Shown piece by piece: positions 9,832-30,285 of a stretch of DNA of 40,551 nucleotides; positions within the stretch are counted from its first letter, which is position 1; each line of letters starts with the position of its first letter. This DNA comes from Desulfobulbaceae bacterium (lineage in GTDB: Bacteria; Desulfobacterota; Desulfobulbia; Desulfobulbales; Desulfocapsaceae): contig JAIFKM010000044.1 of assembly GCA_020049575.1 (NCBI GenBank), positions 84,722-125,272 on the forward strand, written 5' to 3'. Both the position numbers and the translations under genes were made by a program. The notes beneath the pieces were generated by a model. It saw nothing but the letters and a program-made list of their open reading frames with translations. It did not search any database and had not been told where the DNA came from.

Positions 9832-10507
9832 GGAAGTGTTCGAACAGACCATGCCTAAGGAGATGGGCTATGACTACATGGGCATGTCGTACCAGGAGAA
9901 GCGGGCCCAGGAAGGTATCTCGCCGATGGTGATTTTCGCCTTCTCACTGCTCTGCGTCTTCCTGATCCTGGCGGCCCAGTACGAGAGCTGGTCGCTGCCG
10001 TTCTCGGTTTTGCTCGGTACCCCGATAGCGGTGGCAGGAGCTTTTGCGGCACTGCTGTGGCGCGGCCAGGAGAATAACGTTTATGCCCAGATCGGTCTGG
10101 TCATGCTCATCGGTCTCGCTGCCAAAAACGCCATCCTGATCGTCGAATTCGCCAAGATGGAGTACGAGAAGGGCGAAGAATCACTGATCGAGGCAACTCT
10201 CAGGGGGGCCCGCCTTCGTCTGCGGCCGATCCTGATGACCTCGTTTGCCTTCATCCTCGGCTGTGTGCCGCTGGCCATTGCCCAGGGCGCCGGGGCGGTA
10301 TCGCGGCAGGTGATGGGCAGCACCGTCATCGGCGGCATGCTGGCTGCCTCGTTCATCGCTATTTTTATCGTGCCAGTCACCTTCTATGTGGTCGAAAAAC
10401 TCGGACATCGGCAAGGGAAGGCAGTTTCCGCCGTTTCCGGACTTGAAGGGCCCCCAGGGGAATCATCCTCGGCACCTGGCGAAAAGGAGGGTGGACATCA
10501 TGCATAA
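9734..10507 (+). CDS. RND efflux pump, C-terminal part of the same frameshifted gene
   Basis: From about residue 11 (RSAQINASGAAGVSS, nucleotide 9764 onward) this frame matches the last 245 or so residues of AcrB/MexB pumps. It includes MGYDYMGMSYQE, the helix AAQYESWSLPFSVLLGTPIA, GLAAKNAILIVEFAKM and RLRPILMTSFAFILGCVPLA. The GTG at 9734 merely opens the frame; no ribosome binding site supports independent translation. Together with the preceding part, 7372-10507 spans about 1045 codons, the normal length for this family. It ends with an eight-base overlap into the outer-membrane factor gene, which retains its own strong AGGAGG site and could still be translated. Confidence 0.85.
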   Translation: MAWHNGVNSPRSAQINASGAAGVSSAQVMKALEEVFEQTMPKEMGYDYMGMSYQEKRAQEGISPMVIFAFSLLCVFLILAAQYESWSLPFSVLLGTPIAVAGAFAALLWRGQENNVYAQIGLVMLIGLAAKNAILIVEFAKMEYEKGEESLIEATLRGARLRLRPILMTSFAFILGCVPLAIAQGAGAVSRQVMGSTVIGGMLAASFIAIFIVPVTFYVVEKLGHRQGKAVSAVSGLEGPPGESSSAPGEKEGGHHA

Positions 10508-11933
10508 GATTGCGGCAATCATTTTCCTGACCCTCCTCACCGGGGGCTGCATGCTCGGTCCCGATTATCAGCGACCAGCTATCGATACCCCGACTTCCTG
10601 GCGATTGGAGGAAAAGGAGGCGCAAGACCTCGCCCAGACCCTCTGGTGGCGGCAGTTCAATGACCCGGTGCTCGACGAGCTGATCGGTGTCGCACTCCGG
10701 GAAAACAAGGATCTGCTCATCGCGGCGGCGCGGATCGAGGAATATGCCGGCCGTTACGGCATATCCAGGGGGGATCTCTTTCCCCAGGTGGATGCTGCCG
10801 GTGGCTACAGTCGTCAGCGGGTGACCGAACTGGGCGAAAATGGAACCTCTCCCGGTTACAAGACAACCACCGACAGCTATACGGCCACCCTCAACGCCAG
10901 CTGGGAGATAGATCTCTGGGGAAAAGTCCGCCGCAATAACGAGACAGCCCAGGCCCAGCTTCTGGGAACTGAGGAGGGGCGGAGAGGCGCTGTCCTCAGC
11001 CTGGTGAGCAATGTCGCCAGCGCATATATTAATCTCCGCGGCCTGGATCGTCGGCTGGAGATCAGCAGGAGCACGGCGAAAACCCGTGAGGAGTCATACA
11101 TCCTTTTCAAAGAGCGATTTGCCGGAGGGGTCATTTCAGACCTCGAACTCAGTCAGAACAGATCCCAGTATGAAGAGGCGCTGGCGAGCATTCCGGGTCT
11201 GGAAAAGGCGGTCACGCAGCAGGAAAATGGTTTAAGTGTGCTCCTTGGCCGCAATCCCGGTCCGATAGCCAGGGGGAAAAGCATTGATGAACTGCTGGAG
11301 CCAGCCATCGTTGCCGGGATTCCTTCGGATCTGCTTGAGAGGAGGCCGGACATCTTGGCAGCGGAACAGAATCTCATTGCCGCTAACGCCCAGATCGGTG
11401 TTGCCCGGGCCGCCTATTTTCCGGCCATTTCCCTGACCGGCTATTTCGGGTCTGCGAGCGGCGACCTCGGCGATCTGTTCAAGGGACCGGCGAAAATCTG
11501 GCAGTACAGCGGACCGATAACCCTGCCGATTTTTACCGCCGGCAAGATTGAGGGCGGCATAAGGGCGGCCGAGGCAGTCCAGCAGCAGGCGCTTCTCAGC
11601 TATCAGCAGGCAGTACAGAATGCCTTCCGCGAGGTGAATGACGCACTGGTGGACCAGAGCCAGACCCGCAAACAGCTTGCCGCCCAGAAGAGGCAGGTTG
11701 ATTCCCTGCGTCAGTATGCCGATATTGCGCGGCTACGCTATGACAATGGCTATTCAGATTATCTGGAGGTGCTGGACGCCGAGAGGGGCCTGTTCAGTGC
11801 TGAACTGGCCTACACCGAAACCAAAAGCGCGTTGCATCTTGCACTGATCGGTCTCTACAAGGTCATGGGCGGTGGTTGGGTGGATGAAGCCGGAAAACTT
11901 GCCCTGCCCGGCGACCATCCTGCCCAACCGTGA
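10500..11933 (+). CDS. Outer-membrane efflux lipoprotein, NodT/OprM family (477 aa)
   Basis: This is the TolC-like channel of the tripartite efflux system. A short signal sequence ends in LTGGC, with Cys17 as probable lipidation site, followed by MLGPDYQRPAIDTP, the typical start of mature OprM/CusC proteins. Two OEP repeats follow. ASWEIDLWGKVRRN near 134 and DLLERRPDILAAEQNLIAAN near 279 are hallmark motifs, and YDNGYSDYLEVLDAERGLF near 418 is the usual C-terminal helix motif. I start the gene at ATG 10500, preceded by AGGAGG at 10485-10490. The longer frame from 10386 runs through the pump end. It is the last gene of the operon and converges with the ABC exporter genes. Confidence 0.93.
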   Translation: MHKIAAIIFLTLLTGGCMLGPDYQRPAIDTPTSWRLEEKEAQDLAQTLWWRQFNDPVLDELIGVALRENKDLLIAAARIEEYAGRYGISRGDLFPQVDAAGGYSRQRVTELGENGTSPGYKTTTDSYTATLNASWEIDLWGKVRRNNETAQAQLLGTEEGRRGAVLSLVSNVASAYINLRGLDRRLEISRSTAKTREESYILFKERFAGGVISDLELSQNRSQYEEALASIPGLEKAVTQQENGLSVLLGRNPGPIARGKSIDELLEPAIVAGIPSDLLERRPDILAAEQNLIAANAQIGVARAAYFPAISLTGYFGSASGDLGDLFKGPAKIWQYSGPITLPIFTAGKIEGGIRAAEAVQQQALLSYQQAVQNAFREVNDALVDQSQTRKQLAAQKRQVDSLRQYADIARLRYDNGYSDYLEVLDAERGLFSAELAYTETKSALHLALIGLYKVMGGGWVDEAGKLALPGDHPAQP

Positions 11934-19448: not shown

Positions 19449-20635
19449 GCGCTCTGCGAAGTCTTCCGCGGACCGTATGGCTGGTCGGTCTGATCAGCTT
19501 GGTCAATGATTCGGCCTCCGAGATGCTCTATCCGCTGATTCCGCTCTATCTCTCTTCGGTGCTGGTGGCCGGACCGAGGGCGCTTGGCATCATCGAGGGC
19601 ATTGCCGAGGCCACCGCCAGTCTGCTGAAATTATTTTCCGGGGTAGTCGTGGATCGCACCCGGCGGGTTAGACCCTGGTTGATTTTCGGCTACGGTCTGG
19701 CAGGGTTTGGACGGCCGCTGATAGCCTTTGTGTCCAGTTGGCCAATGCTGCTCGTCATTCGCTTTACTGACCGGATTGGCAAGGGGTTGCGCACATCACC
19801 CCGCGATGCCCTGCTTGCCGCCAGTGCCGGGCCGAATATGCGAGGTTTGGCTTTTGGTTTGCACAGGGCTATGGACAATGCCGGGGCTGTGGCCGGACCA
19901 CTGCTCGCGGCTTTTCTCCTGAGTGCGGGTCTGGGGTTACGGGAAATTTTCCTGTGGTCGTTTGTCCCCGCCCTCATCTGCTTCGCACTTGCCCTGACCA
20001 TCCCGGAACCGAAGGATTCACCCGCTATCGCTGCAAAACCCTTTGACTGGCGACTGGCTGACATGCCATCGGAGTTCAAACGTTATCTCATTATAGTGGC
20101 AATCTTTACTCTGGGTAATTCCTCGAACATGTTCCTCCTGCTCCGGGCCAAAGAACTCGGAGTATCTCAGGCTCAGATTCCTCTGTTATGGGCGGCGGTA
20201 TCCGCTGTGGCGATGCTGTTTTCGACACCGCTCTCGGCTCTGTCGGATCGCTGGGGGCGCACCCGGTTGCTGGCGGCCGGTTATCTGGCCTATGGTGGTT
20301 TTTATTTCGCTTTAGGTATGATTGATCAGGGTGGAGTGGCTCTTTTCCTCCTGTTTGGTTTCTACGGCCTCTTTATGGCCGCCACAGAAGGGGTGGAAAA
20401 AGCCCTGGTAGCAGATCTGTCTCCGGAAGGGTTACGGGGAACGGCCTTTGGCTGGTTTAATCTGACAGTCGGCATACTGCTTCTTCCTTCATCTGTGTTT
20501 TTTGGCTGGCTGTATCAGGGAGTATCACCTCTTGCGGCATTCTCCTTTTCCGGATGTTGTGCTGTGCTGGCCGCTGCTCTGCTGTTCGGTCATTTGCGAC
20601 CGGTGTGCTCATCGAATACAAATCAAAGGAATTGA
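19442..20635 (+). CDS. Major facilitator superfamily transporter (397 aa)
   Basis: This inner-membrane transporter has about twelve predicted helices. The segment DRIGKGLRTSPRDALLAAS near residue 113 is the loop motif of a bacterial MFS group often annotated as a multidrug or sugar-phosphate-like permease. LSDRWGRTRLLAAGYLAYGG near 263 is the matching loop of the second half. Substrate cannot be inferred. The start is GTG at 19442 with a weak GGGGA site. The stop is one base from an ATG reading into the TesA-like gene, so these genes probably share a transcript with YbbAP. Confidence 0.87.
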   Translation: MLSALRSLPRTVWLVGLISLVNDSASEMLYPLIPLYLSSVLVAGPRALGIIEGIAEATASLLKLFSGVVVDRTRRVRPWLIFGYGLAGFGRPLIAFVSSWPMLLVIRFTDRIGKGLRTSPRDALLAASAGPNMRGLAFGLHRAMDNAGAVAGPLLAAFLLSAGLGLREIFLWSFVPALICFALALTIPEPKDSPAIAAKPFDWRLADMPSEFKRYLIIVAIFTLGNSSNMFLLLRAKELGVSQAQIPLLWAAVSAVAMLFSTPLSALSDRWGRTRLLAAGYLAYGGFYFALGMIDQGGVALFLLFGFYGLFMAATEGVEKALVADLSPEGLRGTAFGWFNLTVGILLLPSSVFFGWLYQGVSPLAAFSFSGCCAVLAAALLFGHLRPVCSSNTNQRN

Positions 20636-20675
20636 TATGGGTGTTGAACTGGCAGAAATTTTAAGAGGGAAAACG

Positions 20676-21371
20676 ATGAAAATGACAAAGAGAGTGGCGC
20701 TGTATCTCATGGCATTCTTTATCCTGTCGCTTTCGTGGGCATGCAGGCAGGAGCAGGAACAGCCGAAAAACAGTGTGCCTGATAATGCCTCTGCTGCCCT
20801 GATTATCGCTGCAGTCGGAGATAGCCTTACGGCTGGATTGGGTGTTGAAGAAAGTGAAAGCTATCCGGCTTTGCTGGAGAAGCGTTTGAAAACCGAAGGG
20901 TATGATGTGCGGGTGATCAATGCCGGGGTGAGCGGTGAGACGTCAAGCGGTACCCTCGCCCGCATAGATTGGCTGCTTACCTTGAAACCCGCTGTCGTCA
21001 TCCTCGAGACCGGAGCCAATGATGGTCTGCGCGGGATTGATCCAGGTCTCGTTCGCAGCAATCTTGTGAAAATTATTGCTATGCTCCAGGAGAATGGCAT
21101 TATTGTCGTTTTCGCCGGCATGCGCATGGCCTGGAATCTCGGGCCAGGCTACACCTCAGGCTTTAATCAGGTCTATCCCGAGATAGCAGCGGAGAAAAAA
21201 TTGATCTTCATGCCGTTCTTTCTCGAAGGAGTGGCGACAAACCCCTCGCTGAATAACGATGACGGACTTCATCCCAACCCGCAGGGCTACGCCATCATCG
21301 TCAACAATCTCCTGCCCTTTGTGAAACAGGCGTTGGCCGAGGTCGCAAAGGGGCAAGGCGTTGAGCCCTAA
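20676..21371 (+). CDS. tesA: TesA-like SGNH arylesterase/lysophospholipase, exported lipoprotein candidate (231 aa)
   Basis: This is an SGNH-fold hydrolase acting on acyl esters or thioesters in the periplasm. Block I is AAVGDSLTAGLG with the catalytic serine, block II has the glycine in NAGVSGETSSG, block III is ETGANDGLRG, and block V is DGLHPNPQGY with the catalytic Asp-x-x-His. The N-terminus has a basic start, a hydrophobic stretch and LSWAC, so lipid attachment at that cysteine is possible though the lipobox is weak. I chose ATG 20676 because AGAGGGA precedes it and it gives a normal signal peptide. ATG 20637 with AAAGGA is an alternative adding 13 residues. The nearby YbbA/YbbP-like genes mirror the E. 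coli tesA-ybbAP locus, here in the same direction with an MFS gene between. Confidence 0.88.
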   Translation: MKMTKRVALYLMAFFILSLSWACRQEQEQPKNSVPDNASAALIIAAVGDSLTAGLGVEESESYPALLEKRLKTEGYDVRVINAGVSGETSSGTLARIDWLLTLKPAVVILETGANDGLRGIDPGLVRSNLVKIIAMLQENGIIVVFAGMRMAWNLGPGYTSGFNQVYPEIAAEKKLIFMPFFLEGVATNPSLNNDDGLHPNPQGYAIIVNNLLPFVKQALAEVAKGQGVEP

Positions 21372-21386
21372 TATCCGAATGGATAT
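21371..21386 (+). other. Short hairpin at the end of the TesA-like gene
   Basis: ATATCC at 21371-21376 is inverted as GGATAT at 21381-21386 with a GAAT loop. There is no T tract directly after it, so it is not a standard intrinsic terminator. It could stabilise the 3' end of the tesA transcript. Confidence 0.3.
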
Positions 21387-21580
21387 CGGTGCCTTGTCTG
21401 ACGATACCTTTGCTTTTGACTCAGTAATGCCAGACTAACCCCCGCTCTTTTTACTTTGCCAAATATTTCTTGTCTCTCATTCAAAATCTTCTAGAAAAAT
21501 CTGGGACAAGGTCCGATCGGCTGGTATTATCCGCTTTTTTGCATTTCGGGCGGTGATTGTTTCAATGGAAGGGGTTTGGG

Positions 21581-23005
21581 ATGGATGAAAAGAGTGTCCT
21601 CAGTCGGCTTTGGCCGATTGTCGAGGAGTATTATATTGGCCGGAGGGCAGGGAAATATCTTGAATATCATGATCCAGAAGAACTAGCCGTTCTGCTGCAA
21701 CTGGATTTTCAGGGAGACCCGGGAGATTGGCAGGAGGTCTTCAATTGGGTGGAAAAATATCTCCGGTATGCAGTGAAAACCGATCACCCTTCTTTCGTCA
21801 ACCGGATGTGGAGCGGCGCCAGTCTGCCTGCCATGATCGGGGAGGTCGTTACCGCTTTTTCCAATACCTCGGCGTGCACCTTTGAGAGTGCCCCGGTGTC
21901 GACCCTGCTTGAAAAATTCATGTTTGCCCAGCTGCTGGAGATCGTGGGTTTTCACGGAGGCCAGGGGCAGATGACTACCGGTTCGAGCAATGCCAATATG
22001 ATTGCCATGCTGTGTGCCAGGAATCTGCATGATCAGGCAGTAAAAGAGAAGGGTCTGTTTGCAGGCCGTCGACTCTTTGCCTTTGTCAGTGCAGATGCCC
22101 ATTATTCAATGGACCGGGCCGCCAATATCCTGGGGATAGGTCTGGAACAGCTCGTCAAGATTCCTGTTAATGCACGGGGTCAGATGGATGCCTGGGAGTT
22201 GGAGAAAAAACTGGAAGCCGTCTGCCAAGTTGGCGGCCTGCCCTTTTTTGTCGCGGCCACGGCCGGAACCACGGTGCGGGGAGCTTATGACGCCATTGAG
22301 CCGCTGCTCACCCTGCGGGGGAAACACGGCTTCTGGCTCCACGTTGATGGGGCCTGGGGCGGGGCGGCCGTACTGAGCGAGCGTCTGCGGCATAAATTCC
22401 TGCCGGGACTTTCGGAAGCGGACTCATTCACCATGGATTTTCACAAGATGCTCGGTTCGACACTTGTCTGCAACGTCCTTTTATTGAACAAGACGGGGGG
22501 CGTTTTGCAAAACGCCCTGGCCGCTGGTGATGGCAGCTACCTGTTTCGGGAGGCCGAGGATGATGTCTCCGTTGATCTCGGTACTGCCTCTCTGCAGTGC
22601 GGCCGTAGGGTTGACAGCCTGAAATGGTTTCTCGACTGGAAATTCCATGGCAGGCAGGGGCTTGCAGGCCGAGTGGAGTCTTTTCTCGATCTCTGCCGCT
22701 ATGCAGAGGACTGTGTCGAGCGTTATCCGGAACTGGAGATGGTGGTCTCGCGGGAATCCTTCAATATCTGTTTCCGCTTTGTGCGTGATGAGGCTACGGC
22801 CAATGATTTCAACCTCGCTCTGCGTAATCGTCTTTACAAAGGGGGGATAAGTCTGGTCGGCTGTGCCTATATCAGCGGGAAGCTGGTCTTGCGTCTTCTG
22901 ATTACCAATGTTTCCAGCGGTCGGGGTGATATCGACAGATACTTTGCCGGGCTTGTGGCTGCAGGCCGGGAACTGGACCTTGAATGGCAGGGTGAAGGAA
23001 GATGA
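21581..23005 (+). CDS. Group II PLP-dependent amino-acid decarboxylase (474 aa)
   Basis: This is a pyridoxal-phosphate enzyme of the glutamate/aspartate/diaminobutyrate decarboxylase family (fold type I). Seen features are MTTGSSNANMIAM, the cofactor-phosphate region; SADAHYSMDRAANILG near residue 168, with the histidine that stacks on PLP; HVDGAWGGAAV near 253, with the aspartate that pairs with the pyridine nitrogen; and TMDFHKMLGSTLVCN near 284, with the Schiff-base lysine. The motif is FHK rather than the usual PHK. PanP-type aspartate, glutamate, cysteine-sulfinate and diaminobutyrate activities all remain possible. I start at ATG 21581, preceded by AAGGGG. A TTG 24 bases upstream is less likely. 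It converges with the sigma-54 activator gene 45 bases away. Confidence 0.88.
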   Translation: MDEKSVLSRLWPIVEEYYIGRRAGKYLEYHDPEELAVLLQLDFQGDPGDWQEVFNWVEKYLRYAVKTDHPSFVNRMWSGASLPAMIGEVVTAFSNTSACTFESAPVSTLLEKFMFAQLLEIVGFHGGQGQMTTGSSNANMIAMLCARNLHDQAVKEKGLFAGRRLFAFVSADAHYSMDRAANILGIGLEQLVKIPVNARGQMDAWELEKKLEAVCQVGGLPFFVAATAGTTVRGAYDAIEPLLTLRGKHGFWLHVDGAWGGAAVLSERLRHKFLPGLSEADSFTMDFHKMLGSTLVCNVLLLNKTGGVLQNALAAGDGSYLFREAEDDVSVDLGTASLQCGRRVDSLKWFLDWKFHGRQGLAGRVESFLDLCRYAEDCVERYPELEMVVSRESFNICFRFVRDEATANDFNLALRNRLYKGGISLVGCAYISGKLVLRLLITNVSSGRGDIDRYFAGLVAAGRELDLEWQGEGR

Positions 23006-23050
23006 GGAAAGATGCTCTCGCAAAAGACGAGCTGGGAGCACCCTGTTGGC

Positions 23051-24475
23051 TCAATCCCCTTTCTTCTTGAAATCATCCTTGTTCAGGCCGAGGCGTTTCA
23101 TCTTGTTGTAGAGTCCCCGAGGGTTGAGGCCGGCAAGCTGGGCGGCCTTGTTGATCCGGCCCTGGCTTTTGCTCAGGACCATTCCGAGGTAGAGATTCTC
23201 TACCTCGTCCATGATTTCCTGCTGGACCTCCGCCAGTTTCTTGCCCTTCCATGAACTGGGGGCGATTTTCTCGCCGTTCGGGTGGGTCAGGGAAAAGATG
23301 TCCTCGGCATGGAAAACACTGGGCAGATCCTGTAGGGAAATTTCATCGGATTTGCACAAGAGCATGGAGCGTTCGATGACGTTCATCAATTCCCGAATGT
23401 TGCCCGGCCAGTCATAGCGGCACAGGGCCTTCATCGTGGGTTCCGAGATATGCCGGACATCCCGTCCGATCTTGTGCTTGAAATTCATGATGAAACGGCG
23501 GGCCAGGGAGGGGATGTCTTCTCGGCGATATCTCAGTGAGGGAATACGAAGAGTTACGACGCTGAGCCGGTAGAACAGGTCCTTACGGAAGGCTCCGCTG
23601 GCCACCTCGTCTTCCAGGTCCCGGTTGGTGGCGGCAATGACTCGTACATCGACCCAGGTGGATTTCTCGGCCCCGACGGGTCGTATCTCATAATCCTGCA
23701 GGACCCTGAGGAGTTTGGCTTGCAGATGCAGGGGCATCTCGCCGATCTCGTCGAGGAAGATCGTGCCGCCGTGCGCCTGTTCGAAAGCCCCTCGCCGTGA
23801 ACGGGTGGCGCCGGTAAAGGCTCCCTGCTTGTGGCCGAACAGTTCACTTTCGAGGAGTTGCTCGGGCAGCGCGGCGGTGTTGACCGCGACGAAGGGACCG
23901 GCTGCCCGCGGACTCTCAGCGTGGATGACCTTGGCCAGATGCTCTTTGCCGACCCCTGTTTCGCCGGTGATGAGGAGCAGGGAATCGCTGGGGGCGACCT
24001 GCTGCACCTCGTTCATGAAGATCTGCATAACCTCGCTATGGGAGATGAGATCGGTGAGCTTTGGTTTGGCCAGGCCACGATGGTCAAAGCGTTCGAGTTG
24101 GAAATACAGGCGTCGAGATTCAAGGGTTGCCTCGATGGCCTCGGTCAGGCTTTTGAGTGAGACACCGGAGTAGAGTACGGCATCGGCGCCTGCGGCGATA
24201 AGCTGGGCCTGTTTCTCGGCAGACTCGATGTCATGGAGGATGACAGTGGTTGGATTCTCGGGGAGGTTGTTGAGCAGGTAGATACTCGACTCCACGGGCT
24301 TAGGGATGAGGGCGTGGCTGATAACGATTACATCCGCACAACTCTGTACGACCTTCTGCCAGGGATGTTTTTTATGGCCAAACGACTCAACCTGCACATC
24401 GGTCATGGAGATTTTGTCTTCAAGCAGTTTTTGCAGCTCGACGTCTTTAAGAGCAAATATCAATCTGGTCAGCAT
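23051..24475 (-). CDS. Sigma-54-dependent transcriptional activator with degenerate receiver-like domain (474 aa)
   Basis: This NtrC-family enhancer-binding protein has three regions. The first 125 or so residues resemble a response-regulator receiver, but the expected phospho-acceptor aspartate is serine (DVIVISHALIPKP) and the conserved lysine-proline is missing. Phosphorelay control is therefore doubtful. The AAA+ domain (about 145-375) keeps Walker A GETGVGKE near 169, the sigma-54 contact loop GAFTGA near 216, Walker B GTIFLDEIGEM and the R-finger region FRKDLFYRLSVV. A Fis-type helix-turn-helix lies near the C-terminus (INKAAQLAGLNPRGLYNKMK). No sensor kinase is adjacent. Its start faces the citrate synthase gene, where I see a sigma-54 promoter match, so it is a candidate regulator of that gene. 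Confidence 0.92.
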   Translation of the reverse strand: MLTRLIFALKDVELQKLLEDKISMTDVQVESFGHKKHPWQKVVQSCADVIVISHALIPKPVESSIYLLNNLPENPTTVILHDIESAEKQAQLIAAGADAVLYSGVSLKSLTEAIEATLESRRLYFQLERFDHRGLAKPKLTDLISHSEVMQIFMNEVQQVAPSDSLLLITGETGVGKEHLAKVIHAESPRAAGPFVAVNTAALPEQLLESELFGHKQGAFTGATRSRRGAFEQAHGGTIFLDEIGEMPLHLQAKLLRVLQDYEIRPVGAEKSTWVDVRVIAATNRDLEDEVASGAFRKDLFYRLSVVTLRIPSLRYRREDIPSLARRFIMNFKHKIGRDVRHISEPTMKALCRYDWPGNIRELMNVIERSMLLCKSDEISLQDLPSVFHAEDIFSLTHPNGEKIAPSSWKGKKLAEVQQEIMDEVENLYLGMVLSKSQGRINKAAQLAGLNPRGLYNKMKRLGLNKDDFKKKGD

Positions 24476-24483
24476 ACTCCGTC

Positions 24484-24548
24484 CTTTAAAAAAATCGGTA
24501 GATCAGTTCCTGTTTTGCCTGTAAAAAAGATCACTTTAAAAAAATCGG
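24484..24548. repeat. Pair of 15-base direct repeats upstream of the sigma-54 activator
   Basis: CTTTAAAAAAATCGG occurs at 24484-24498 and again at 24534-24548, exactly 50 bases apart, or about five helical turns. The first copy lies nine bases before the activator's start codon and the second within its probable 5' leader. Identical spacing on one DNA face would suit a binding site, perhaps for autoregulation. The A tract lowers the information content, so a duplication without function is possible. Confidence 0.6.
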
Positions 24549-24831
24549 CAATTACCTTCCGAATGAAAAAGGAAGGGAAATAAGCAGGTCAGCGCTGTTT
24601 GTTGCCTCTGTGCAACTTACTGCTTAAATATAAAGGGAAAGTATTTATTTGCCAGAAGAAAAAAACGCGCCTCCCAGTTTTTTGTGATATCGTATTAAAT
24701 CCAATAATACCTATTATATAGAATAATAAAGGAAATCATGTTCCGAAAATAAAAGAGAGGGGGGTGGCGAGATGATCGGGAGGAATTATTAAAATGATTT
24801 AAAACAATAATTTATGTGTATAGAGTGGATC
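24549..24831. other. AT-rich intergenic region between activator and citrate synthase
   Basis: About 280 bases, markedly richer in A and T than the flanking genes, hold no supported ORF. Several TATA-like stretches (for example TATTATATAGAATAAT near 24711-24726) may serve as sigma-70 promoters for the minus-strand activator or the plus-strand citrate synthase gene. An enhancer site for a sigma-54 activator would be expected here. None can be named by eye. Confidence 0.4.
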
Positions 24832-24847
24832 TGGCATTATAAATGCT
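24832..24847 (+). promoter_or_regulatory. Predicted sigma-54 (-24/-12) promoter of citrate synthase
   Basis: TGGCATTATAAATGCT matches the consensus TGGCAC-N5-TTGCT at nine of eleven defined positions and has the required GG-N10-GC spacing. The C before the motif fits the consensus pyrimidine. Transcription would start near 24859, about 107 bases before the citrate synthase ATG. An NtrC-type activator gene lies divergently just upstream. This is a pattern match only. Confidence 0.55.
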
Positions 24848-24965
24848 ATAAGCGATCCGGTATGCAGATATCGGGTTACATTGAAAAGCGAGATGCTTCA
24901 AAACCTCAACGGAGCTTTGTCCGGGAAGAGAGGGGAAGCATCGAGGTGTCACAGGGAAAAATGTC

Positions 24966-26123
24966 ATGTCAAAAAAGTGTTATGAAGAGCAGGAATTGAA
25001 ACAGTCGGAAGCTGGTCTTGCAGACATTGTCGCCTGTCAGTCGGATATTTGTTTTATTGACGGCAAGAATTGCAGGCTGGTCTATCGAGGTTATGACGCT
25101 CTGGATCTGGCCATGAACAGTAATTTCGAGGAGGTCGCATATCTTCTCTGGTATGGCTGTTTGCCACGCATCACAGAGTTCAAGGCGTTTCTTTCCGGTT
25201 TTACCGGGTCGATGGCCCTACCGGGTGAAACCGTCATGATTCTCCGGATGTTCCCCAAGTCGGTGACCCCCATGGAAGTTCTCCGGACTGCGGTTTCTTC
25301 GCTCGGGCACTGGGATCCAGACAGTGGCAACACTGCCCTCGATGCCTGTCTGCGCAAGGCCCAGCGTCTGACACTGCGTATGCCCCTGCTGATTGCCGCC
25401 CACCAGCGCCTGCGGGAAGGAAACGAGCCGATCAAGCCAGTCCCTGGTCAGGGCATCGCCTATAATTTTCTCTATACCCTGCTAGGTAAAACGCCTGATC
25501 CGAAGATCGTCGAAGCCTTTGATATCGCGCTTATTCTCCATGCCGATCATGAATTGAATGCCTCGACATTTGCCGCCCGGGTGACTGCTGCAACTATGGC
25601 TGATATCTATTCGTGCGTTACCAGCGCCATTGGGGCCCTGAAGGGGCCGTTGCACGGCGGGGCCAATATGGAGGTCATGCAGATGATCGAGGAGATCGGC
25701 ACCCCGGAAAATGCTGAGGCCTATATTCTTGAGAAGCTGGAAAACAAGGTGAAGATTCCTGGTTTCGGTCATCGGGTCTACCGCTGTGAGGATCCGCGGG
25801 TCGGTATCCTGCGGGGATGTGCTGAATCCATCTCCGAGTTGGTCGGAGAGGGCAAGAATTATGAGATAACCCGGGAGATTGAACGGGTCGTCCTGGAGAA
25901 GACCAAAGTGTATCCCAATGTCGATCTCTATACGGCCTCGCTGTATCATGCCATGGGAATCCCCACTGAACTCTTTACCCCGATATTTGCCATAAGCAGA
26001 ATTGTTGGCTGGACATCCCACATTCTCGAGCAGTGGTCGAATAATCGTTTAATTCGACCCCGCGCCGAGTATACAGGGCCGCAATCGCTGAGTTATACCC
26101 CGATTGATCAGCGATTGAGATAA
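24966..26123 (+). CDS. gltA: Citrate synthase (short bacterial/archaeal type), 385 aa
   Basis: This cytoplasmic enzyme condenses acetyl-CoA with oxaloacetate. A 2-methylcitrate synthase role is the main alternative, since the two families overlap in sequence. The catalytic triad is visible: histidine in GPLHGGANMEVM near residue 229, histidine in GFGHRVYRCEDPR near 268, and aspartate in YPNVDLYTASLYHAMGIP near 319. The length of 385 residues fits the short dimeric type, without the N-terminal extension of the E. coli hexameric enzyme. AGGGAAAA lies before the ATG at 24966. A second ATG five bases upstream is in another frame with an early stop. The gene stands alone with the probable sigma-54 promoter upstream, an uncommon control for a central enzyme. 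Confidence 0.93.
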   Translation: MSKKCYEEQELKQSEAGLADIVACQSDICFIDGKNCRLVYRGYDALDLAMNSNFEEVAYLLWYGCLPRITEFKAFLSGFTGSMALPGETVMILRMFPKSVTPMEVLRTAVSSLGHWDPDSGNTALDACLRKAQRLTLRMPLLIAAHQRLREGNEPIKPVPGQGIAYNFLYTLLGKTPDPKIVEAFDIALILHADHELNASTFAARVTAATMADIYSCVTSAIGALKGPLHGGANMEVMQMIEEIGTPENAEAYILEKLENKVKIPGFGHRVYRCEDPRVGILRGCAESISELVGEGKNYEITREIERVVLEKTKVYPNVDLYTASLYHAMGIPTELFTPIFAISRIVGWTSHILEQWSNNRLIRPRAEYTGPQSLSYTPIDQRLR

Positions 26124-26298
26124 CAGGGATGAGATATTTTTGATGTGACCGGTCTTTCCTCGTCCGGGAGGTTGTAAACAATTTCAGGCTGGAAATAAAT
26201 TAATGTCGATCCGTCCAGAACAACGGATGGGTTGGTAGCGCTGCTTGGTTCTTCGAGGCCAGGTTTCTTTCAACATGTGGAGTTGCAGATAAAAAACT

Positions 26299-26775
26299 AT
26301 GTATCCATCGCATTTTGGAAACAATCCATTGTTTCCCCGCAAACAGGACTTTGAGGTGGTTGTCAAGGATGAGGTTGTGGGTTTGGGTGTGATCTCACGT
26401 CGGGCTTTCGCTAAAGGTGAGTTGGTAGCAGCCCTTTCGGGAGAAATCATTCATGACCTGCGTCAGCACAGTTTGCAGATAGAGCCGGACGTTCATCTCT
26501 ATGATGTGTATTTTTCAGGATATTTTCTCCACTCCTGCTCGCCGAACGTGGAGCTGGATATGAAGAATCTGCTGGTCTATGCTGTCAGGGATATCCAGCC
26601 TGACGACTATCTTTTTATGGATTATGCCCAGACGGAGGATATTCTTTTTAAACAATTTCCCTGCAGTTGCGGATCAGAGAACTGTCGTGGATGGATTACC
26701 GGCAGAAAAGAGCAGGTAGCAGGCGGTGCCTCTGGCCTTATGGAAGATATTCATAAGGAAGAAATTCACGGGTGA
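26299..26775 (+). CDS. SET-domain protein with post-SET-like cysteine motif (158 aa)
   Basis: This is a predicted S-adenosylmethionine-dependent protein lysine methyltransferase. GLGVISRRAFAKGELV (near residue 33) is the SET-N SAM-binding start. FLHSCSPNVE (near 74) corresponds to the NHSCxPN motif with the first asparagine replaced by leucine. FMDYA (near 112) carries the catalytic tyrosine. FPCSCGSENCRGW (near 123) is a CxCx4C post-SET zinc-type motif. The substrate is unknown. The stop overlaps the GTG of the following PLP decarboxylase by four bases, so the pair is translationally coupled. Ribosome binding site support for ATG 26299 is weak. Confidence 0.82.
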   Translation: MYPSHFGNNPLFPRKQDFEVVVKDEVVGLGVISRRAFAKGELVAALSGEIIHDLRQHSLQIEPDVHLYDVYFSGYFLHSCSPNVELDMKNLLVYAVRDIQPDDYLFMDYAQTEDILFKQFPCSCGSENCRGWITGRKEQVAGGASGLMEDIHKEEIHG

Positions 26776-27986
26776 GCGCTTGCATGAATGCATGGTGGGA
26801 GAGGGGCGACCTCTGTTTCAGTAACGGGCTGTTGATGTTCGCCGATCGAATCGTGGAGGATCTGGCCCGGCAGTATGGCAGTCCTTCGTTTTTTTACAGT
26901 GCCCGGAGAATATCGGAGAATATCGGCAGATTGCACACCGCTTTGGGGGGTGCCGGTTTCGGCGGAAACCTTCACAGGGTCAACTATGCCATGAAGGCGA
27001 ATCGCTTCGCCCCTCTGCTGACCTTTCTGAAAACCACGGGCCTCTGCATGATTGATGCATGCTCTCCACAGGAGGTGGAGCATGCCATAAGTTGCGGGTT
27101 CCGTCCCGATGAGATCAGCTTTACCGCTACGAGTCTGTCGGACAGGGATTTTGATCGGTTGTCGAGGCTTGATGGCTTGATAATGAACTGCGACTCGCTC
27201 TATGCTATTCAACAGTGGGGTGAGCGTGGGGCAGGGCGGAGTATCGGTATCCGTATCAATCCCGCAGTGGGAGTCGGCAGGGCCCAGAACGAGTTGCTGC
27301 AATACAGTGGCGGCAGAACTACCAAGTTCGGTATCTACCGGGAGCAGTTCGAAGAGGCGAGGGGGTTGGCCGCAAGATATGGCCTTACCATCGAGAGGGT
27401 GCATTTTCATACCGGCTGCGGCTATTTGACTCCTCAGCTGCCGGCATGGGAAAAGGTCATTGAGGAATGTCTCTGGTTTATTGACCAGTTGGAGACGGTC
27501 AAGACCGTCAATGTCGGCGGCGGGTTGGGAGTGCCTCATGTTGACCGGGATGAACCTCTTGATTTGGGACTCTGGGCCGGCATTCTGAAAAATCATTTTC
27601 TCTCAAGAAAACTCAAGATTGAAGTGGAACCGGGAGACTATCTGGTCAAGGACGCTGGACTTCTCGTCCTGACGGTCAACCAGGTGGAGAAGAAAAAGGA
27701 CACTCTTTTTGTTGGTGTTGATGCCGGCTTTAATCTGGCAGTGGAACCGGCTGTCTATGGCCTGCCTTTTCAACCTGTTCCGGCGAGGCGCAGGGAAGGT
27801 GATGAGATCAGGACGACCGTTGTTGGCAATATCAACGAGGCTCTTGACATCTGGTACTCAGATATCCCGCTGCCGCCAATGCGTTCGAGAGATTGTCTGA
27901 GCTTGATTAACGCCGGAGCCTACTCATCCTCGATGTCCTCGAATCACTGTATGCGCGGAGAATTCAAAGAATACCTGCTGTTGTAG
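26772..27986 (+). CDS. Fold-type III PLP decarboxylase, diaminopimelate/ornithine decarboxylase superfamily (404 aa)
   Basis: A two-domain alanine-racemase-like barrel and beta domain. The PLP Schiff-base lysine is in NYAMKANRF near residue 74. HTGCGYLTPQ near 217 and VNVGGGLGVP near 248 match the barrel motifs, and EVEPGDYLVKDAG near 284 is the variant of the phosphate-binding EPGR segment. The C-terminal GAYSSSMSSNH contains the tyrosine near the active site. It is clearly in the lysA/speC-like superfamily but not an ordinary LysA, because the usual EPGR arginine and CES motif are changed; NINEALDIW stands near the expected CES position. The substrate is therefore open. GTG 26772 overlaps the SET gene; ATG 26784 is an alternative start. 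Confidence 0.8.
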   Translation: MSACMNAWWERGDLCFSNGLLMFADRIVEDLARQYGSPSFFYSARRISENIGRLHTALGGAGFGGNLHRVNYAMKANRFAPLLTFLKTTGLCMIDACSPQEVEHAISCGFRPDEISFTATSLSDRDFDRLSRLDGLIMNCDSLYAIQQWGERGAGRSIGIRINPAVGVGRAQNELLQYSGGRTTKFGIYREQFEEARGLAARYGLTIERVHFHTGCGYLTPQLPAWEKVIEECLWFIDQLETVKTVNVGGGLGVPHVDRDEPLDLGLWAGILKNHFLSRKLKIEVEPGDYLVKDAGLLVLTVNQVEKKKDTLFVGVDAGFNLAVEPAVYGLPFQPVPARRREGDEIRTTVVGNINEALDIWYSDIPLPPMRSRDCLSLINAGAYSSSMSSNHCMRGEFKEYLLL

Positions 27987-28057
27987 AGGGGCATCGGCGA
28001 AGTGTCAGAGAGGTGCGGCCTGAAGGCTGTGTTGTACGGCGAATGAGTATGCTTTTT

Positions 28058-28098
28058 AAAACGGGAACAGCCATGTGTTGCAGTTCCCGTTTTTGTAT
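28058..28098 (+). terminator. Strong intrinsic terminator after the PLP decarboxylase
   Basis: AAAACGGGAAC at 28058-28068 pairs perfectly with GTTCCCGTTTT at 28083-28093 across a 14-base loop. The 3' arm ends in a T tract that continues with TTGTATTT. It should end the SET-decarboxylase transcript. Confidence 0.85.
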
Positions 28099-28210
28099 TT
28101 ATGCGGTAGGATAGAGTGTAATTTTCGAGACGGCTGCTTGTTCAGGTTGACAGGGGATCTCTCTTGGTATAGCCCGGGAGAGGGTGGGTGAACAACGAGG
28201 TGAGGAGCAT

Positions 28211-28756
28211 ATGGGGAAGACGTTTCAGGAACAATTACTGAAGCTTGGTCTGGTCGACAAGAAACAGGTCAATCAGGCAAAAAAGACGGAGCATCAGAAA
28301 AAAACACTCAAGGTAAGCAAAGCACAAGAGATTGTAGATGAAAACAAGATCATTGCCCAACAGGCTGTTGCCGAGAAAAAAGAGCGGGAACGTCTACGAA
28401 ATCTCGAACGTCAGGCAGAGCTGAAGAAGAAGGAAGAGGCGGAGCAGATTCGGCAGATTATTGATAGCAATCGCCTGATCAAGGATCCGAACGGAGTGGC
28501 ATTTCGTTTTCCTGACAGAGGTAAAATCCAGAGAATCTTTGTTCCAAAGGATACCCTGGAGGATCTCAGCCGGGGGCGATCGGCCATTGTCCGATCCGGA
28601 CCGTTCTATGAGATTATCCCCGCTGTAGCCGCTGAAAGAATTCGTCTCATTGATCAGCGGGTTATTGTTCTGCAGAACGGCCAGGAGAAAAAGGTTGAGA
28701 TGGACGCCGAAGATCCTTATGCCGGATATGAAGTGCCCGATGATCTGATGTGGTGA
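28211..28756 (+). CDS. DUF2058 family protein, YaiL-like (181 aa)
   Basis: This small cytoplasmic protein matches the DUF2058 (E. coli YaiL) family. It starts MGKTFQEQLLKLGLVDKKQ and has a highly charged coiled-coil stretch (about 20-95) of lysine, glutamate and glutamine. A compact domain follows with IQRIFVPKDTLEDLSRGRSAIVRSG and ends in YAGYEVPDDLMW. The family's role is not established; a nucleoprotein or ribosome-associated function has been suggested by its charge pattern, which I treat as speculation. I start at ATG 28211, since GAGGAG lies just before it and the family begins there; a longer frame reaches 28184. It ends nine bases from a convergent gene. Confidence 0.85.
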   Translation: MGKTFQEQLLKLGLVDKKQVNQAKKTEHQKKTLKVSKAQEIVDENKIIAQQAVAEKKERERLRNLERQAELKKKEEAEQIRQIIDSNRLIKDPNGVAFRFPDRGKIQRIFVPKDTLEDLSRGRSAIVRSGPFYEIIPAVAAERIRLIDQRVIVLQNGQEKKVEMDAEDPYAGYEVPDDLMW

Positions 28757-28765
28757 GCAGAAGGA

Positions 28766-29374
28766 TTATTTTGAGCTGACCTTTGGCAGCAAGCTGAACT
28801 GGAGCACGTTTTTTCTGGCCTGAATATTGACGAACTTCATGCTGATAGTCAGGGTTTTGCTGCCGGTCTTTGCTACCAGGGGCTCCATGTCCTGCATGGA
28901 AATCGGGAATTCCCGGCCGTTCAGGAGCGAAACAAGCGCCTGTCCGAGTTCTCCCTGGGCGGCATCGCCGCTGGTCTGCATCTTATCAACCACCGGTCTG
29001 ATGTAGAGAATCTGTTTGGCGGCATCGAAACGCACGTTGGCATTACAGTCAAAATCCAGTTCAATCTCTCCAACCTTGAGATTGATCTGATGTCCGGCGA
29101 GTTCGGAGACAATCTGCAGATTGTTGCCGGCGACATGCAGGCGACAGGATATGAGCTTGTCACTGAGCTTCAGATTTTCAATGCTGATAATCCTGATTGT
29201 GCCTCTCAGGCTTTTGGATTGTGCGTCGATATCCAGTGGCAAAGCCAGCTTAACCGTGTCAGCCAGAACTTTCTCCGGGAGATTTAAGGTTATGGTTTCT
29301 GTTGTCGCAGCTGGTGACTGGCCAGGCAGGAGCAGGGATAAAAGTATGAGTACAATCTTGATGAGCATGTTCAT
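28766..29374 (-). CDS. Exported hypothetical protein with signal peptide (202 aa)
   Basis: An N-terminal signal sequence (MNMLIKIVLILLSLLLPGQS) ends at AA near residue 22. The rest is a soluble, mostly beta-type domain with repeated hydrophobic alternation, for example VGEIELDFDCNANVRFD and TLTISMKFVNIQARKNVLQF. This recalls the lipid-binding-like DUF1439/YceB fold, but I am not confident of homology. I chose ATG 29374 because it makes a clean signal peptide and AGAGGA lies eight bases upstream. The start overlaps the end of the next upstream membrane gene by four bases, so the two are an operon. Confidence 0.65.
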   Translation of the reverse strand: MNMLIKIVLILLSLLLPGQSPAATTETITLNLPEKVLADTVKLALPLDIDAQSKSLRGTIRIISIENLKLSDKLISCRLHVAGNNLQIVSELAGHQINLKVGEIELDFDCNANVRFDAAKQILYIRPVVDKMQTSGDAAQGELGQALVSLLNGREFPISMQDMEPLVAKTGSKTLTISMKFVNIQARKNVLQFSLLPKVSSK

Positions 29375-30285
29375 GATGTCTGTCCTCTGAAAGATCGGGT
29401 GAAGGGAAAGCGTGATAGTATTAACGTCTGGATAGTTAAAGTGCAAGCCATAAAGAGGCCGAGAATTGAGGCCCAGTCGCGCATCCTACTGTGTTCGTGC
29501 CAGCGGTTCACCTGCACGGTCGAGGCGGAGATAAAACTGCCCTGCAATGAAAAAATTCCTGATTGTTCGGGGAAATTTCCCGTAAGACGAATTTTTTCGC
29601 CACTGAACGTTGTGATTGTTCGTTTACTGTGGGAAAAGGGAATACGGTCAAATTCAATAGGCTTTCCCGGGCGATGCTCTTTTTCGCGTAATGTCTTGAT
29701 GTAAAAATAGTTGCTCTTCTCGAGATCTTGCAGAAGCAGATACGGGCCGGCGATATAGAGTGATAGACAGCAGAGCGGGACTAGTGTTTTGAAAGCCGTC
29801 GGAACAAACGGCGCCGAAGGCTTTTGTGTCAGGATGAGATGCCAGATTCGGAGAAAGGAGACGAAGCCGAATATCGTGATGGCGATCCCGAACGGATGCT
29901 CCGGCCAAAAAATATGCCACTGCAAGGTTGACCAGTTGATCGGCAGAAAGAGGTGTACGCCATTACCCCATTTAATCTGAGTGGCGTCCAGGAGAAGGTG
30001 GCACAGGCAGTTGAGGCTGAGGATTATAAATGTCCTGGCCGGCAGTCTGCTTATTGCTGCCAGGGCTGCGCTGAGGAGAAGGCAGAAGAAGAGACTTGCC
30101 TGGGTCGATGTGTAGAGCCTGGCAATAAAAGGATCAGTGATCTGGAAAAAGAGCAGAATTCTGAGTATGACCCAAGGGAGGTCGGGGAGTATGCAGGCAA
30201 TGATAACCCAGTAAAATTCCCGGTCATGGCAGAAAAGACGGCTGGCGGGAGCCTGCAGGGCTATATGGCAGAGTGTATTCGGCAA
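29371..30285 (-). CDS. Membrane-bound metal-dependent hydrolase-like protein, YdjM/DUF457-type (304 aa)
   Basis: The reading frame holds PNTLCHIALQAPASR near its start, PDLPWV, and CHLLLDATQIKWGNGVHL with further helices. These recall the YdjM/DUF457 family of inner-membrane proteins. Several transmembrane segments alternate with short loops, followed by a C-terminal soluble region of about 100 residues and a last helix. The family's enzymatic activity is unproven. The frame has no ATG near the conserved beginning. I place the start at TTG 30285, where the family motif begins (PNTLCH); TTG 30384 is the longer alternative, leaving only 48 bases to the divergent helicase gene. It is coupled to the exported protein downstream. 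Confidence 0.6.
   Translation of the reverse strand: MPNTLCHIALQAPASRLFCHDREFYWVIIACILPDLPWVILRILLFFQITDPFIARLYTSTQASLFFCLLLSAALAAISRLPARTFIILSLNCLCHLLLDATQIKWGNGVHLFLPINWSTLQWHIFWPEHPFGIAITIFGFVSFLRIWHLILTQKPSAPFVPTAFKTLVPLCCLSLYIAGPYLLLQDLEKSNYFYIKTLREKEHRPGKPIEFDRIPFSHSKRTITTFSGEKIRLTGNFPEQSGIFSLQGSFISASTVQVNRWHEHSRMRDWASILGLFMACTLTIQTLILSRFPFTRSFRGQTS

What the first reader, a model, noticed from the sequence alone, without database searches (positions are those of the whole stretch)
26299..27986. SET-domain methyltransferase translationally coupled to an atypical PLP decarboxylase
A bacterial SET protein with a post-SET cysteine motif overlaps by four bases a lysA/speC-like decarboxylase whose EPGR and CES-type motifs are altered. 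A shared strong terminator closes the unit. A protein methyltransferase paired with an amino-acid decarboxylase suggests lysine-, polyamine- or D-amino-acid-related metabolism in which methylation controls the enzyme or acts on the same small-molecule pathway. The pairing is new to me.
Basis: partly seen in the sequence, partly recalled or inferred. Interest (0 to 1): 0.55.

Follow-up and report, generated by a model that had tools for sequence, protein, structure and literature searches.

The report
Predicted methionine-methylating and decarboxylating gene pair
Two overlapping genes in a sulfate-reducing bacterium look like the first two enzymes of a known route from methionine to the sulfur compound DMSP (an osmolyte and a source of a climate-active gas), a route whose first enzyme has been described as confined to Burkholderia.

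Summary
A 158-aa SET protein (26299-26775) overlaps by four bases a 404-aa LysA-fold decarboxylase (26772-27986); a terminator-like hairpin follows. The reading changes: the SET protein's closest solved relative, by sequence (E 4e-36) and predicted fold (Z 21.1 against 13.3 for the next entry), is BurB, which methylates free methionine to S-methylmethionine (SMM). The decarboxylase lies in a clade apart from LysA-like rows, together with decarboxylases of bur-like clusters (BurI type, reported to turn SMM into DMSP-amine); a family member also sits beside the unrelated methionine S-methyltransferase MmtN. The pair is adjacent in 22 of 22 BurB-bearing relatives and in 70 of 80 named loci; five loci add the aminotransferase and aldehyde dehydrogenase of the pathway.

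So the pairing is known (bur cluster, 2020). What appears new is where it occurs: papers I could search call BurB confined to Burkholderia, yet it is in Desulfobulbales, including cable bacteria, and in marine Gammaproteobacteria. Most Desulfobulbales copies are two-gene modules: 20 of 22 lack a BurD orthologue, so whether the end product is DMSP or DMSP-amine is open. No activity was tested.

The parts
26299..26775 (+). BurB-like SET-domain protein, predicted methionine S-methyltransferase (158 aa)
   Evidence: Pfam SET; PDB BurB E 4.1e-36; fold Z 21.1 to 9l4v; H57, H78, Y109 invariant in 17 and in 32 rows
26772..26775 (+). Four-base GTGA overlap of stop and start codons, probable translational coupling
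   Evidence: Sequence; a 4-base overlap is possible in 27 of the 70 adjacent SET-then-decarboxylase loci examined, and a 1-base overlap in 11
26772..27986 (+). BurI-type PLP decarboxylase, predicted S-methylmethionine decarboxylase (404 aa)
   Evidence: Pfam; LysA model 209.7 bits, below the 297.9 cut-off; family signature; clade apart from LysA-like rows
28058..28093 (+). Terminator-like hairpin after the pair
   Evidence: Fold -20.7 kcal/mol, z -4.0, followed by T run

Best explanation
The pair is a stand-alone BurB-BurI module. The SET protein transfers the methyl of SAM to the sulfur of free L-methionine, giving S-methylmethionine (SMM). The decarboxylase, a LysA-fold PLP enzyme whose substrate site has changed, removes the carboxyl group to give 3-dimethylsulfoniopropylamine (DMSP-amine). 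Translation is probably coupled. In relatives with a longer operon an aminotransferase and an aldehyde dehydrogenase finish the route to DMSP. In this genus and most relatives those two steps are either done by general enzymes or do not occur, so DMSP as the end product is plausible but not shown. Shown here: family, conservation, linkage, predicted fold, conserved residues. Inferred: both activities, substrates, coupling and end product. The confidence given is for the first two steps; for DMSP as end product I would give about 0.5.
For: BurB is the nearest solved protein by sequence (E 4.1e-36, next 1.4e-6) and by predicted fold (Z 21.1, next 13.3). BurB residues H72, H93 and Y124 map to invariant H57, H78 and Y109. 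Decarboxylase family separated from 12 LysA-like rows with support 100 (quick tree of 89 rows) and 48-53% identical to decarboxylases of bur-like clusters and of MmtN-linked loci. Pair adjacent in 22 of 22 BurB-like relatives and 70 of 80 named loci. Five loci carry all four pathway genes. The same decarboxylase family lies beside MmtN, an unrelated methionine S-methyltransferase. Published: BurB makes SMM in vitro; a burI mutant accumulates SMM; BurI and SMMDC are stated to catalyse SMM to DMSP-amine.
Against: No activity was measured. Identity to BurB is about 48% over the SET domain, and SAM-contacting R42 and H138 of BurB are V27 and S123 here. BurD orthologues are absent from 20 of 22 pair-bearing relatives and no BurE orthologue is clear in the window's genome, which is only 75.6% complete. 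Some BurB-like proteins (Pandoraea, Pseudomonas) have no BurI-type partner, and one relative has a BurI-type gene with no SET gene on its contig. I did not hold the sequences of BurI or SMMDC themselves; bur-like cluster copies stood in for them.
Confidence: 0.82

Rival explanations
1. The two enzymes work as stated, but the module stops at DMSP-amine or feeds a product other than DMSP; DMSP-amine itself would be a cationic solute or a building block.
For: BurD orthologues (61-62%) in only 2 of 22 pair-bearing relatives; two of the 22 genomes (G110, G125) give no match at all to BurE. Outside the cassette and NRPS-PKS loci no neighbour other than the partner recurs in most of the 80 loci. Desulfobulbus rhabdoformis has both a lone pair (L067) and a four-gene cassette (L089).
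Against: burD and burE mutants of B. thailandensis still make the downstream product, so general enzymes can do these steps. Several genomes, the window's own included, have aldehyde dehydrogenases 46-47% identical to BurE. The D. rhabdoformis lone-pair decarboxylase carries a frameshift in the record.
Confidence: 0.35
2. One reading: the SET protein methylates a protein, perhaps the decarboxylase, and so controls it.
For: SET domains are best known as protein lysine methyltransferases; the overlap and co-conservation would fit a modifier and its target.
Against: The closest relative is BurB, which acts on free methionine, and BurB stands well above all protein-methylating SET structures. The decarboxylase family occurs with MmtN in place of the SET protein, so it does not need a SET modifier.
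Confidence: 0.03
3. The decarboxylase is a diverged lysine, ornithine, arginine or diaminopimelate decarboxylase in lysine or polyamine metabolism, and the SET gene is a chance neighbour.
For: LysA fold and sub-cut-off LysA, NspC and DokD profile matches; four related loci (L036-L039) lie within about 8 kb of genes that look like polyamine genes (read by eye).
Against: Below the LysA cut-off; EPGR and the CES-type cysteine absent throughout the family; separate clade; another LysA-like gene, 26% identical, exists in the same genome; adjacency to the SET gene holds across several phyla.
Confidence: 0.06

Closest known systems
BurB and BurI of the bur (malleicyprol) cluster, Burkholderia thailandensis
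   Same: SET-domain methionine S-methyltransferase with a LysA-fold SMM decarboxylase in one pathway (PMC7496086, PMC12542666); fold, key residues and decarboxylase signature shared with bur-like cluster copies
   Different: Here a two-gene overlapping unit with no NRPS-PKS, aminotransferase or aldehyde dehydrogenase beside it; a sulfate reducer; about 48% identity
MmtN-linked decarboxylase loci (Rhizobium lusitanum, Rhodovulum sp. P5 plasmids)
   Same: Decarboxylase of the same family with the GN[IV]NEALD signature beside a methionine S-methyltransferase
   Different: The methyltransferase is the unrelated class I enzyme MmtN, not a SET protein
Diaminopimelate decarboxylase LysA
   Same: Fold (Z 40.5, 2.3 A over 378 residues, 23% identity to 1twi) and general domain layout
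   Different: EPGR becomes EPG[DET], the CES-type Cys becomes Asn, and the score is below the LysA cut-off
Eukaryotic SET histone lysine methyltransferases (ASH1L, MLL)
   Same: SET and post-SET fold (Z 13.3 to ASH1L)
   Different: Much weaker match than BurB by sequence and fold

Membership tests
BurB methionine S-methyltransferase | SET domain with closest match to BurB rather than to protein-methylating SETs | tested here: met
   E 4.1e-36 against 1.4e-6 for the next; Z 21.1 against 13.3
BurB methionine S-methyltransferase | Residues equivalent to H72, H93 and Y124 of BurB | tested here: met
   H57, H78, Y109 invariant in 17 and in 32 rows
BurB methionine S-methyltransferase | Other named SAM contacts R42, R133, H138 | tested here: inconclusive
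   V27, K118, S123 here; these positions also vary in copies inside four-gene DMSP cassettes such as L097, so they do not define the family
BurB methionine S-methyltransferase | Makes SMM from methionine and SAM | not testable with these tools
   Needs an enzyme assay
BurI / SMMDC S-methylmethionine decarboxylase | Clade with decarboxylases of bur-like clusters, outside LysA | tested here: met
   77-row family separated from 12 LysA-like rows, support 100, with 4 bur-cluster rows inside. BurI and SMMDC themselves were not in the tree
BurI / SMMDC S-methylmethionine decarboxylase | Genetic linkage to a methionine S-methyltransferase | tested here: met
   SET partner in 22 of 22 and 70 of 80 loci; MmtN partner in L139
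BurI / SMMDC S-methylmethionine decarboxylase | Decarboxylates SMM | not testable with these tools
   Needs an enzyme assay
LysA diaminopimelate decarboxylase | Score above the curated LysA cut-off | tested here: not met
   209.7 bits, cut-off 297.9
LysA diaminopimelate decarboxylase | EPGR and CES-type motifs | tested here: not met
   EPGD and GNINEALD
Complete BurB-I-D-E DMSP pathway | BurD-type aminotransferase and BurE-type aldehyde dehydrogenase | tested here: not met
   Best in G000: 31% to BurD, 46% to BurE, none adjacent; the genome is only 75.6% complete
Protein lysine methyltransferase (SET) | Methylates a protein lysine | not testable with these tools
   Needs an assay; the closest kin BurB acts on free methionine

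The most novel reading that the evidence does not exclude
Sulfate reducers, cable bacteria and marine Gammaproteobacteria carry an overlooked, self-sufficient two-gene sulfonium module whose product is DMSP-amine rather than DMSP. Or its decarboxylase, which has Asn in place of the CES-type Cys throughout the family, itself makes DMSP-aldehyde by decarboxylation-dependent transamination; a PDB entry of a Cys387Ser D-ornithine/D-lysine decarboxylase with PMP and an aldehyde suggests this chemistry is possible in the fold (title of 9cpz; that Cys387 is the same position is recalled, not tested). Against the second form: the Asn is equally present in copies that have BurD beside them.
Probability: 0.3. 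Interest if true: 0.68.

Novelty: new member of a known kind. Interest (0 to 1): 0.5.

Why it matters
Published surveys describe BurB as confined to Burkholderia and unimportant in marine systems: PMC10989797 (no Tara Oceans homologue at E < 1e-40), PMC9135737 and the 2026 review PMC13360808. Here the burB-burI pair occurs in cultured Desulfobulbales, a cable bacterium, Desulfobacter and Desulfobacula, and MAGs of Gammaproteobacteria such as OM182 and Pseudohongiella. A 1e-40 cut-off would hide many: with a B. ubonensis BurB homologue as query and an assumed database of 1e10 residues, 33 of 81 pass, and the window, OM182 and Electrothrix proteins do not. If the enzymes work as predicted, anaerobic sediment bacteria that make sulfide could also make SMM, DMSP-amine or DMSP, which can be tested directly in cultured strains.

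Tried and rejected
Ordinary LysA: rejected by score, motifs and tree. Protein methylation of the partner: disfavoured because the SET protein is BurB-like and the decarboxylase family also pairs with MmtN. Riboswitch control: Rfam gave only one sub-threshold match over 20000-30000. A link between loss of the Cys and absence of BurD: rejected, the Asn is universal in the family including BurD-linked copies. The class-III aminotransferase on contig C34 and the aldehyde dehydrogenase on C176 as dedicated late enzymes: their neighbours (glutamate-dehydrogenase-like and aldehyde-oxidoreductase-like genes; a molybdenum-hydroxylase-like gene; read by eye) suggest nothing specific. A first gene-calling pass missed decarboxylases in some loci because of long spurious frames; the adjacency counts come from tblastn instead. 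My notebook entry 3 calls L088 a full cassette; one search lists an aminotransferase but no BurE cluster member for it, so the count here is five four-gene loci, not six. For the same reason the label 'fullBIDE' in the tree includes L088, and also a second copy of L097 (L115). Some dN/dS values were saturated or undefined; only the L005 pair is quoted.

Rows dropped: short decarboxylase fragments (330 aa or less, 300 or less for added rows) from the tree; loci without both proteins at adequate length from the distance comparison (72 used). The 66 'pair' rows include copies fetched twice under different collections only where listed there; most duplicates between the two collections were left out.

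Full report
What is there. The SET ORF (26299-26775) and the decarboxylase ORF (26772-27986) overlap by GTGA. Pfam recognises a SET domain and both domains of the Orn/DAP/Arg decarboxylase family. A hairpin with a T tail follows the second gene. Searching the window's genome found one SET match and one other relative of the decarboxylase, 26% identical and LysA-like.

The SET protein. The best PDB match is BurB (9l4t, 9l4v) at E 4.1e-36; the next, human MLL1, is at 1.4e-6. A predicted model (mean pLDDT 83.8) aligns to BurB at Z 21.1 (2.6 A over 143 residues) and to the next protein, ASH1L, at 13.3. BurB methylates free methionine to S-methylmethionine (PMC12542666, parts 1 and 2 of 4 read; PMC7496086, parts 1 and 2 of 3 read). 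Of the BurB residues named there, H72, H93 and Y124 correspond to H57, H78 and Y109, invariant in 17 and in 32 aligned rows. R42, R133 and H138 correspond to V27, K118 and S123. The correspondence uses the ungapped alignment.

The decarboxylase. It scores 209.7 bits with the LysA model, below the 297.9 cut-off. Its model (mean pLDDT 87.4) has the LysA fold (Z 40.5 to 1twi). Of 92 family members aligned, none shows EPGR; where the region is covered the motif is EPGD, EPGE or EPGT (one ESGD), and the position of the CES-type Cys is Asn. In a quick tree of 89 rows, the family (77 rows, four of them from bur-like clusters) is separated with support 100 from 12 LysA-like rows; several LysA-like rows have long branches, so the order among them is unsure.

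Conservation of the pair. The SET protein is found in 24 of 144 relatives; 22 are BurB-like (E 1.5e-39 or better) and two are weak matches of another kind. All 22 have the decarboxylase beside the SET gene, in two of them in the reverse order; the two weak ones have none. All five genomes of the genus have the pair. Searching the other way, the decarboxylase is in 24 of 144: the same 22, one cut by a contig end (G072) and one with no SET match on its contig (G096). In an even draw of the phylum, 3 of 395 genomes have a BurB-like match better than 1e-50 and 10 have any match at 1e-10, so the module is patchy and concentrated in the window's order. Of 80 named loci kept from 146 found in the genome collection, 70 have the decarboxylase adjacent, one has it 5.2 kb away, one ends at a contig edge and eight have none within the sequence held. 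Of those eight, genomes of six were searched: two (L102, L107) hold a BurI-type gene elsewhere, and four (two Pandoraea, two Pseudomonas) hold only weaker relatives of about 30% identity or less. SET and decarboxylase distances correlate (r 0.82, 72 loci; 0 of 2000 permutations as high; shared species history contributes to this).

Pathway context. Five loci hold all four genes of the DMSP methylation pathway: L097 and L098 in the order B-I-D-E, and L085, L089 and L091 in the order I-B-D-E; L088 has I-B-D (with for L097 and L089). L102, L106, L107 and L109 have an NRPS-PKS-sized protein of about 2600 aa nearby. The Eleftheria terrae locus L142 holds a SET gene, aminotransferase, aldehyde dehydrogenase, megasynthase and decarboxylase. 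On a Rhizobium lusitanum plasmid the decarboxylase is followed by a 301-aa protein that matches 7vvv-7vvx at E 3.9e-105; PMC9135737 gives these accessions for its MmtN structures (passages). On a Rhodovulum plasmid an aminotransferase, the decarboxylase and MmtN-like stretches occur together. The same decarboxylase family thus pairs with two unrelated methionine S-methyltransferases, which is the strongest comparative argument that SMM is its substrate. BurI and SMMDC are stated to catalyse this step, and a plant diaminopimelate decarboxylase tested with SMM was inactive (PMC11464771, passages). PMC12542666 calls the S. mobaraensis and Burkholderia methyltransferases homologous, while PMC9135737 lists S. 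mobaraensis under MmtN; I did not resolve this.

What is missing. BurD orthologues (61-62%) occur in 2 of the 22 pair-bearing relatives, G013 and G039; the rest, with G000 at 31%, are at 36% or less. BurE at 60% occurs only in G039; the others are at 47% or less (G000 46%), and two (G110, G125) have no match. So the usual form in Desulfobulbales is a two-gene module. General enzymes could finish the pathway, as burD and burE mutants of B. thailandensis still make product, or the product may be DMSP-amine.

What is known and what is not. The pair of activities is known. The distribution is not in the papers I could search: seven papers hold BurB with S-methylmethionine and six hold burB with DMSP. 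PMC10989797 says BurB is confined to closely related Burkholderia (passages), PMC9135737 says only some Burkholderia (passages), and PMC13360808 says exclusively B. thailandensis (passages). Searches for DMSP with cable bacteria, and for DMSP biosynthesis with sulfate-reducing and Desulfobacterota, listed nothing that by title or start of abstract describes this (listings only). The mmtN and S. mobaraensis originals were not held.

Noticed in passing
L141 (Rhizobium bangladeshense plasmid p7) 6952-8864: A BurB-like SET gene (44% identity) lies between an asparagine-synthase-like gene and an AdoMet-decarboxylase-like gene, in a stretch with ribonucleotide reductase, RuvC and ParB genes: possibly another SET-plus-decarboxylase pairing with an unrelated decarboxylase.
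   Followed up: partly
L100, L101 (Pandoraea), L108, L111, L112 (Pseudomonas): BurB-like SET genes with no BurI-type decarboxylase within the held flank; the genomes of four of these five were searched and have only weaker relatives. What SMM, if made, would serve there is unknown.
   Followed up: partly
L067 and L089 (Desulfobulbus rhabdoformis DSM 8777): One strain has both a lone pair and a four-gene cassette; the lone-pair decarboxylase is frameshifted in this record, which may be decay or a sequencing error.
   Followed up: partly
L138 (Rhodovulum sp. P5 plasmid) 8845-11156: A decarboxylase frame runs into an MmtN-like stretch whose remainder is in another frame: a frameshift or an unusual fusion.
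   Followed up: no
L036-L039: A second decarboxylase of the same superfamily lies about 3-6 kb downstream on the other strand, with genes that in L036, L037 and L039 look by eye like agmatinase and a carboxyspermidine-dehydrogenase-like protein.
   Followed up: no
window 7372-10507: An RND efflux pump gene appears split into two overlapping frames (819 and 257 aa), a frameshift or an assembly error (identified by eye).
   Followed up: no
window 21557-26123: A group II PLP decarboxylase (closest to diaminobutyrate decarboxylases), a sigma-54-type regulator on the other strand and a citrate synthase lie upstream of the pair; clusters with the same relative positions recur in L034, L035 and L040, its near relatives.
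   Followed up: partly
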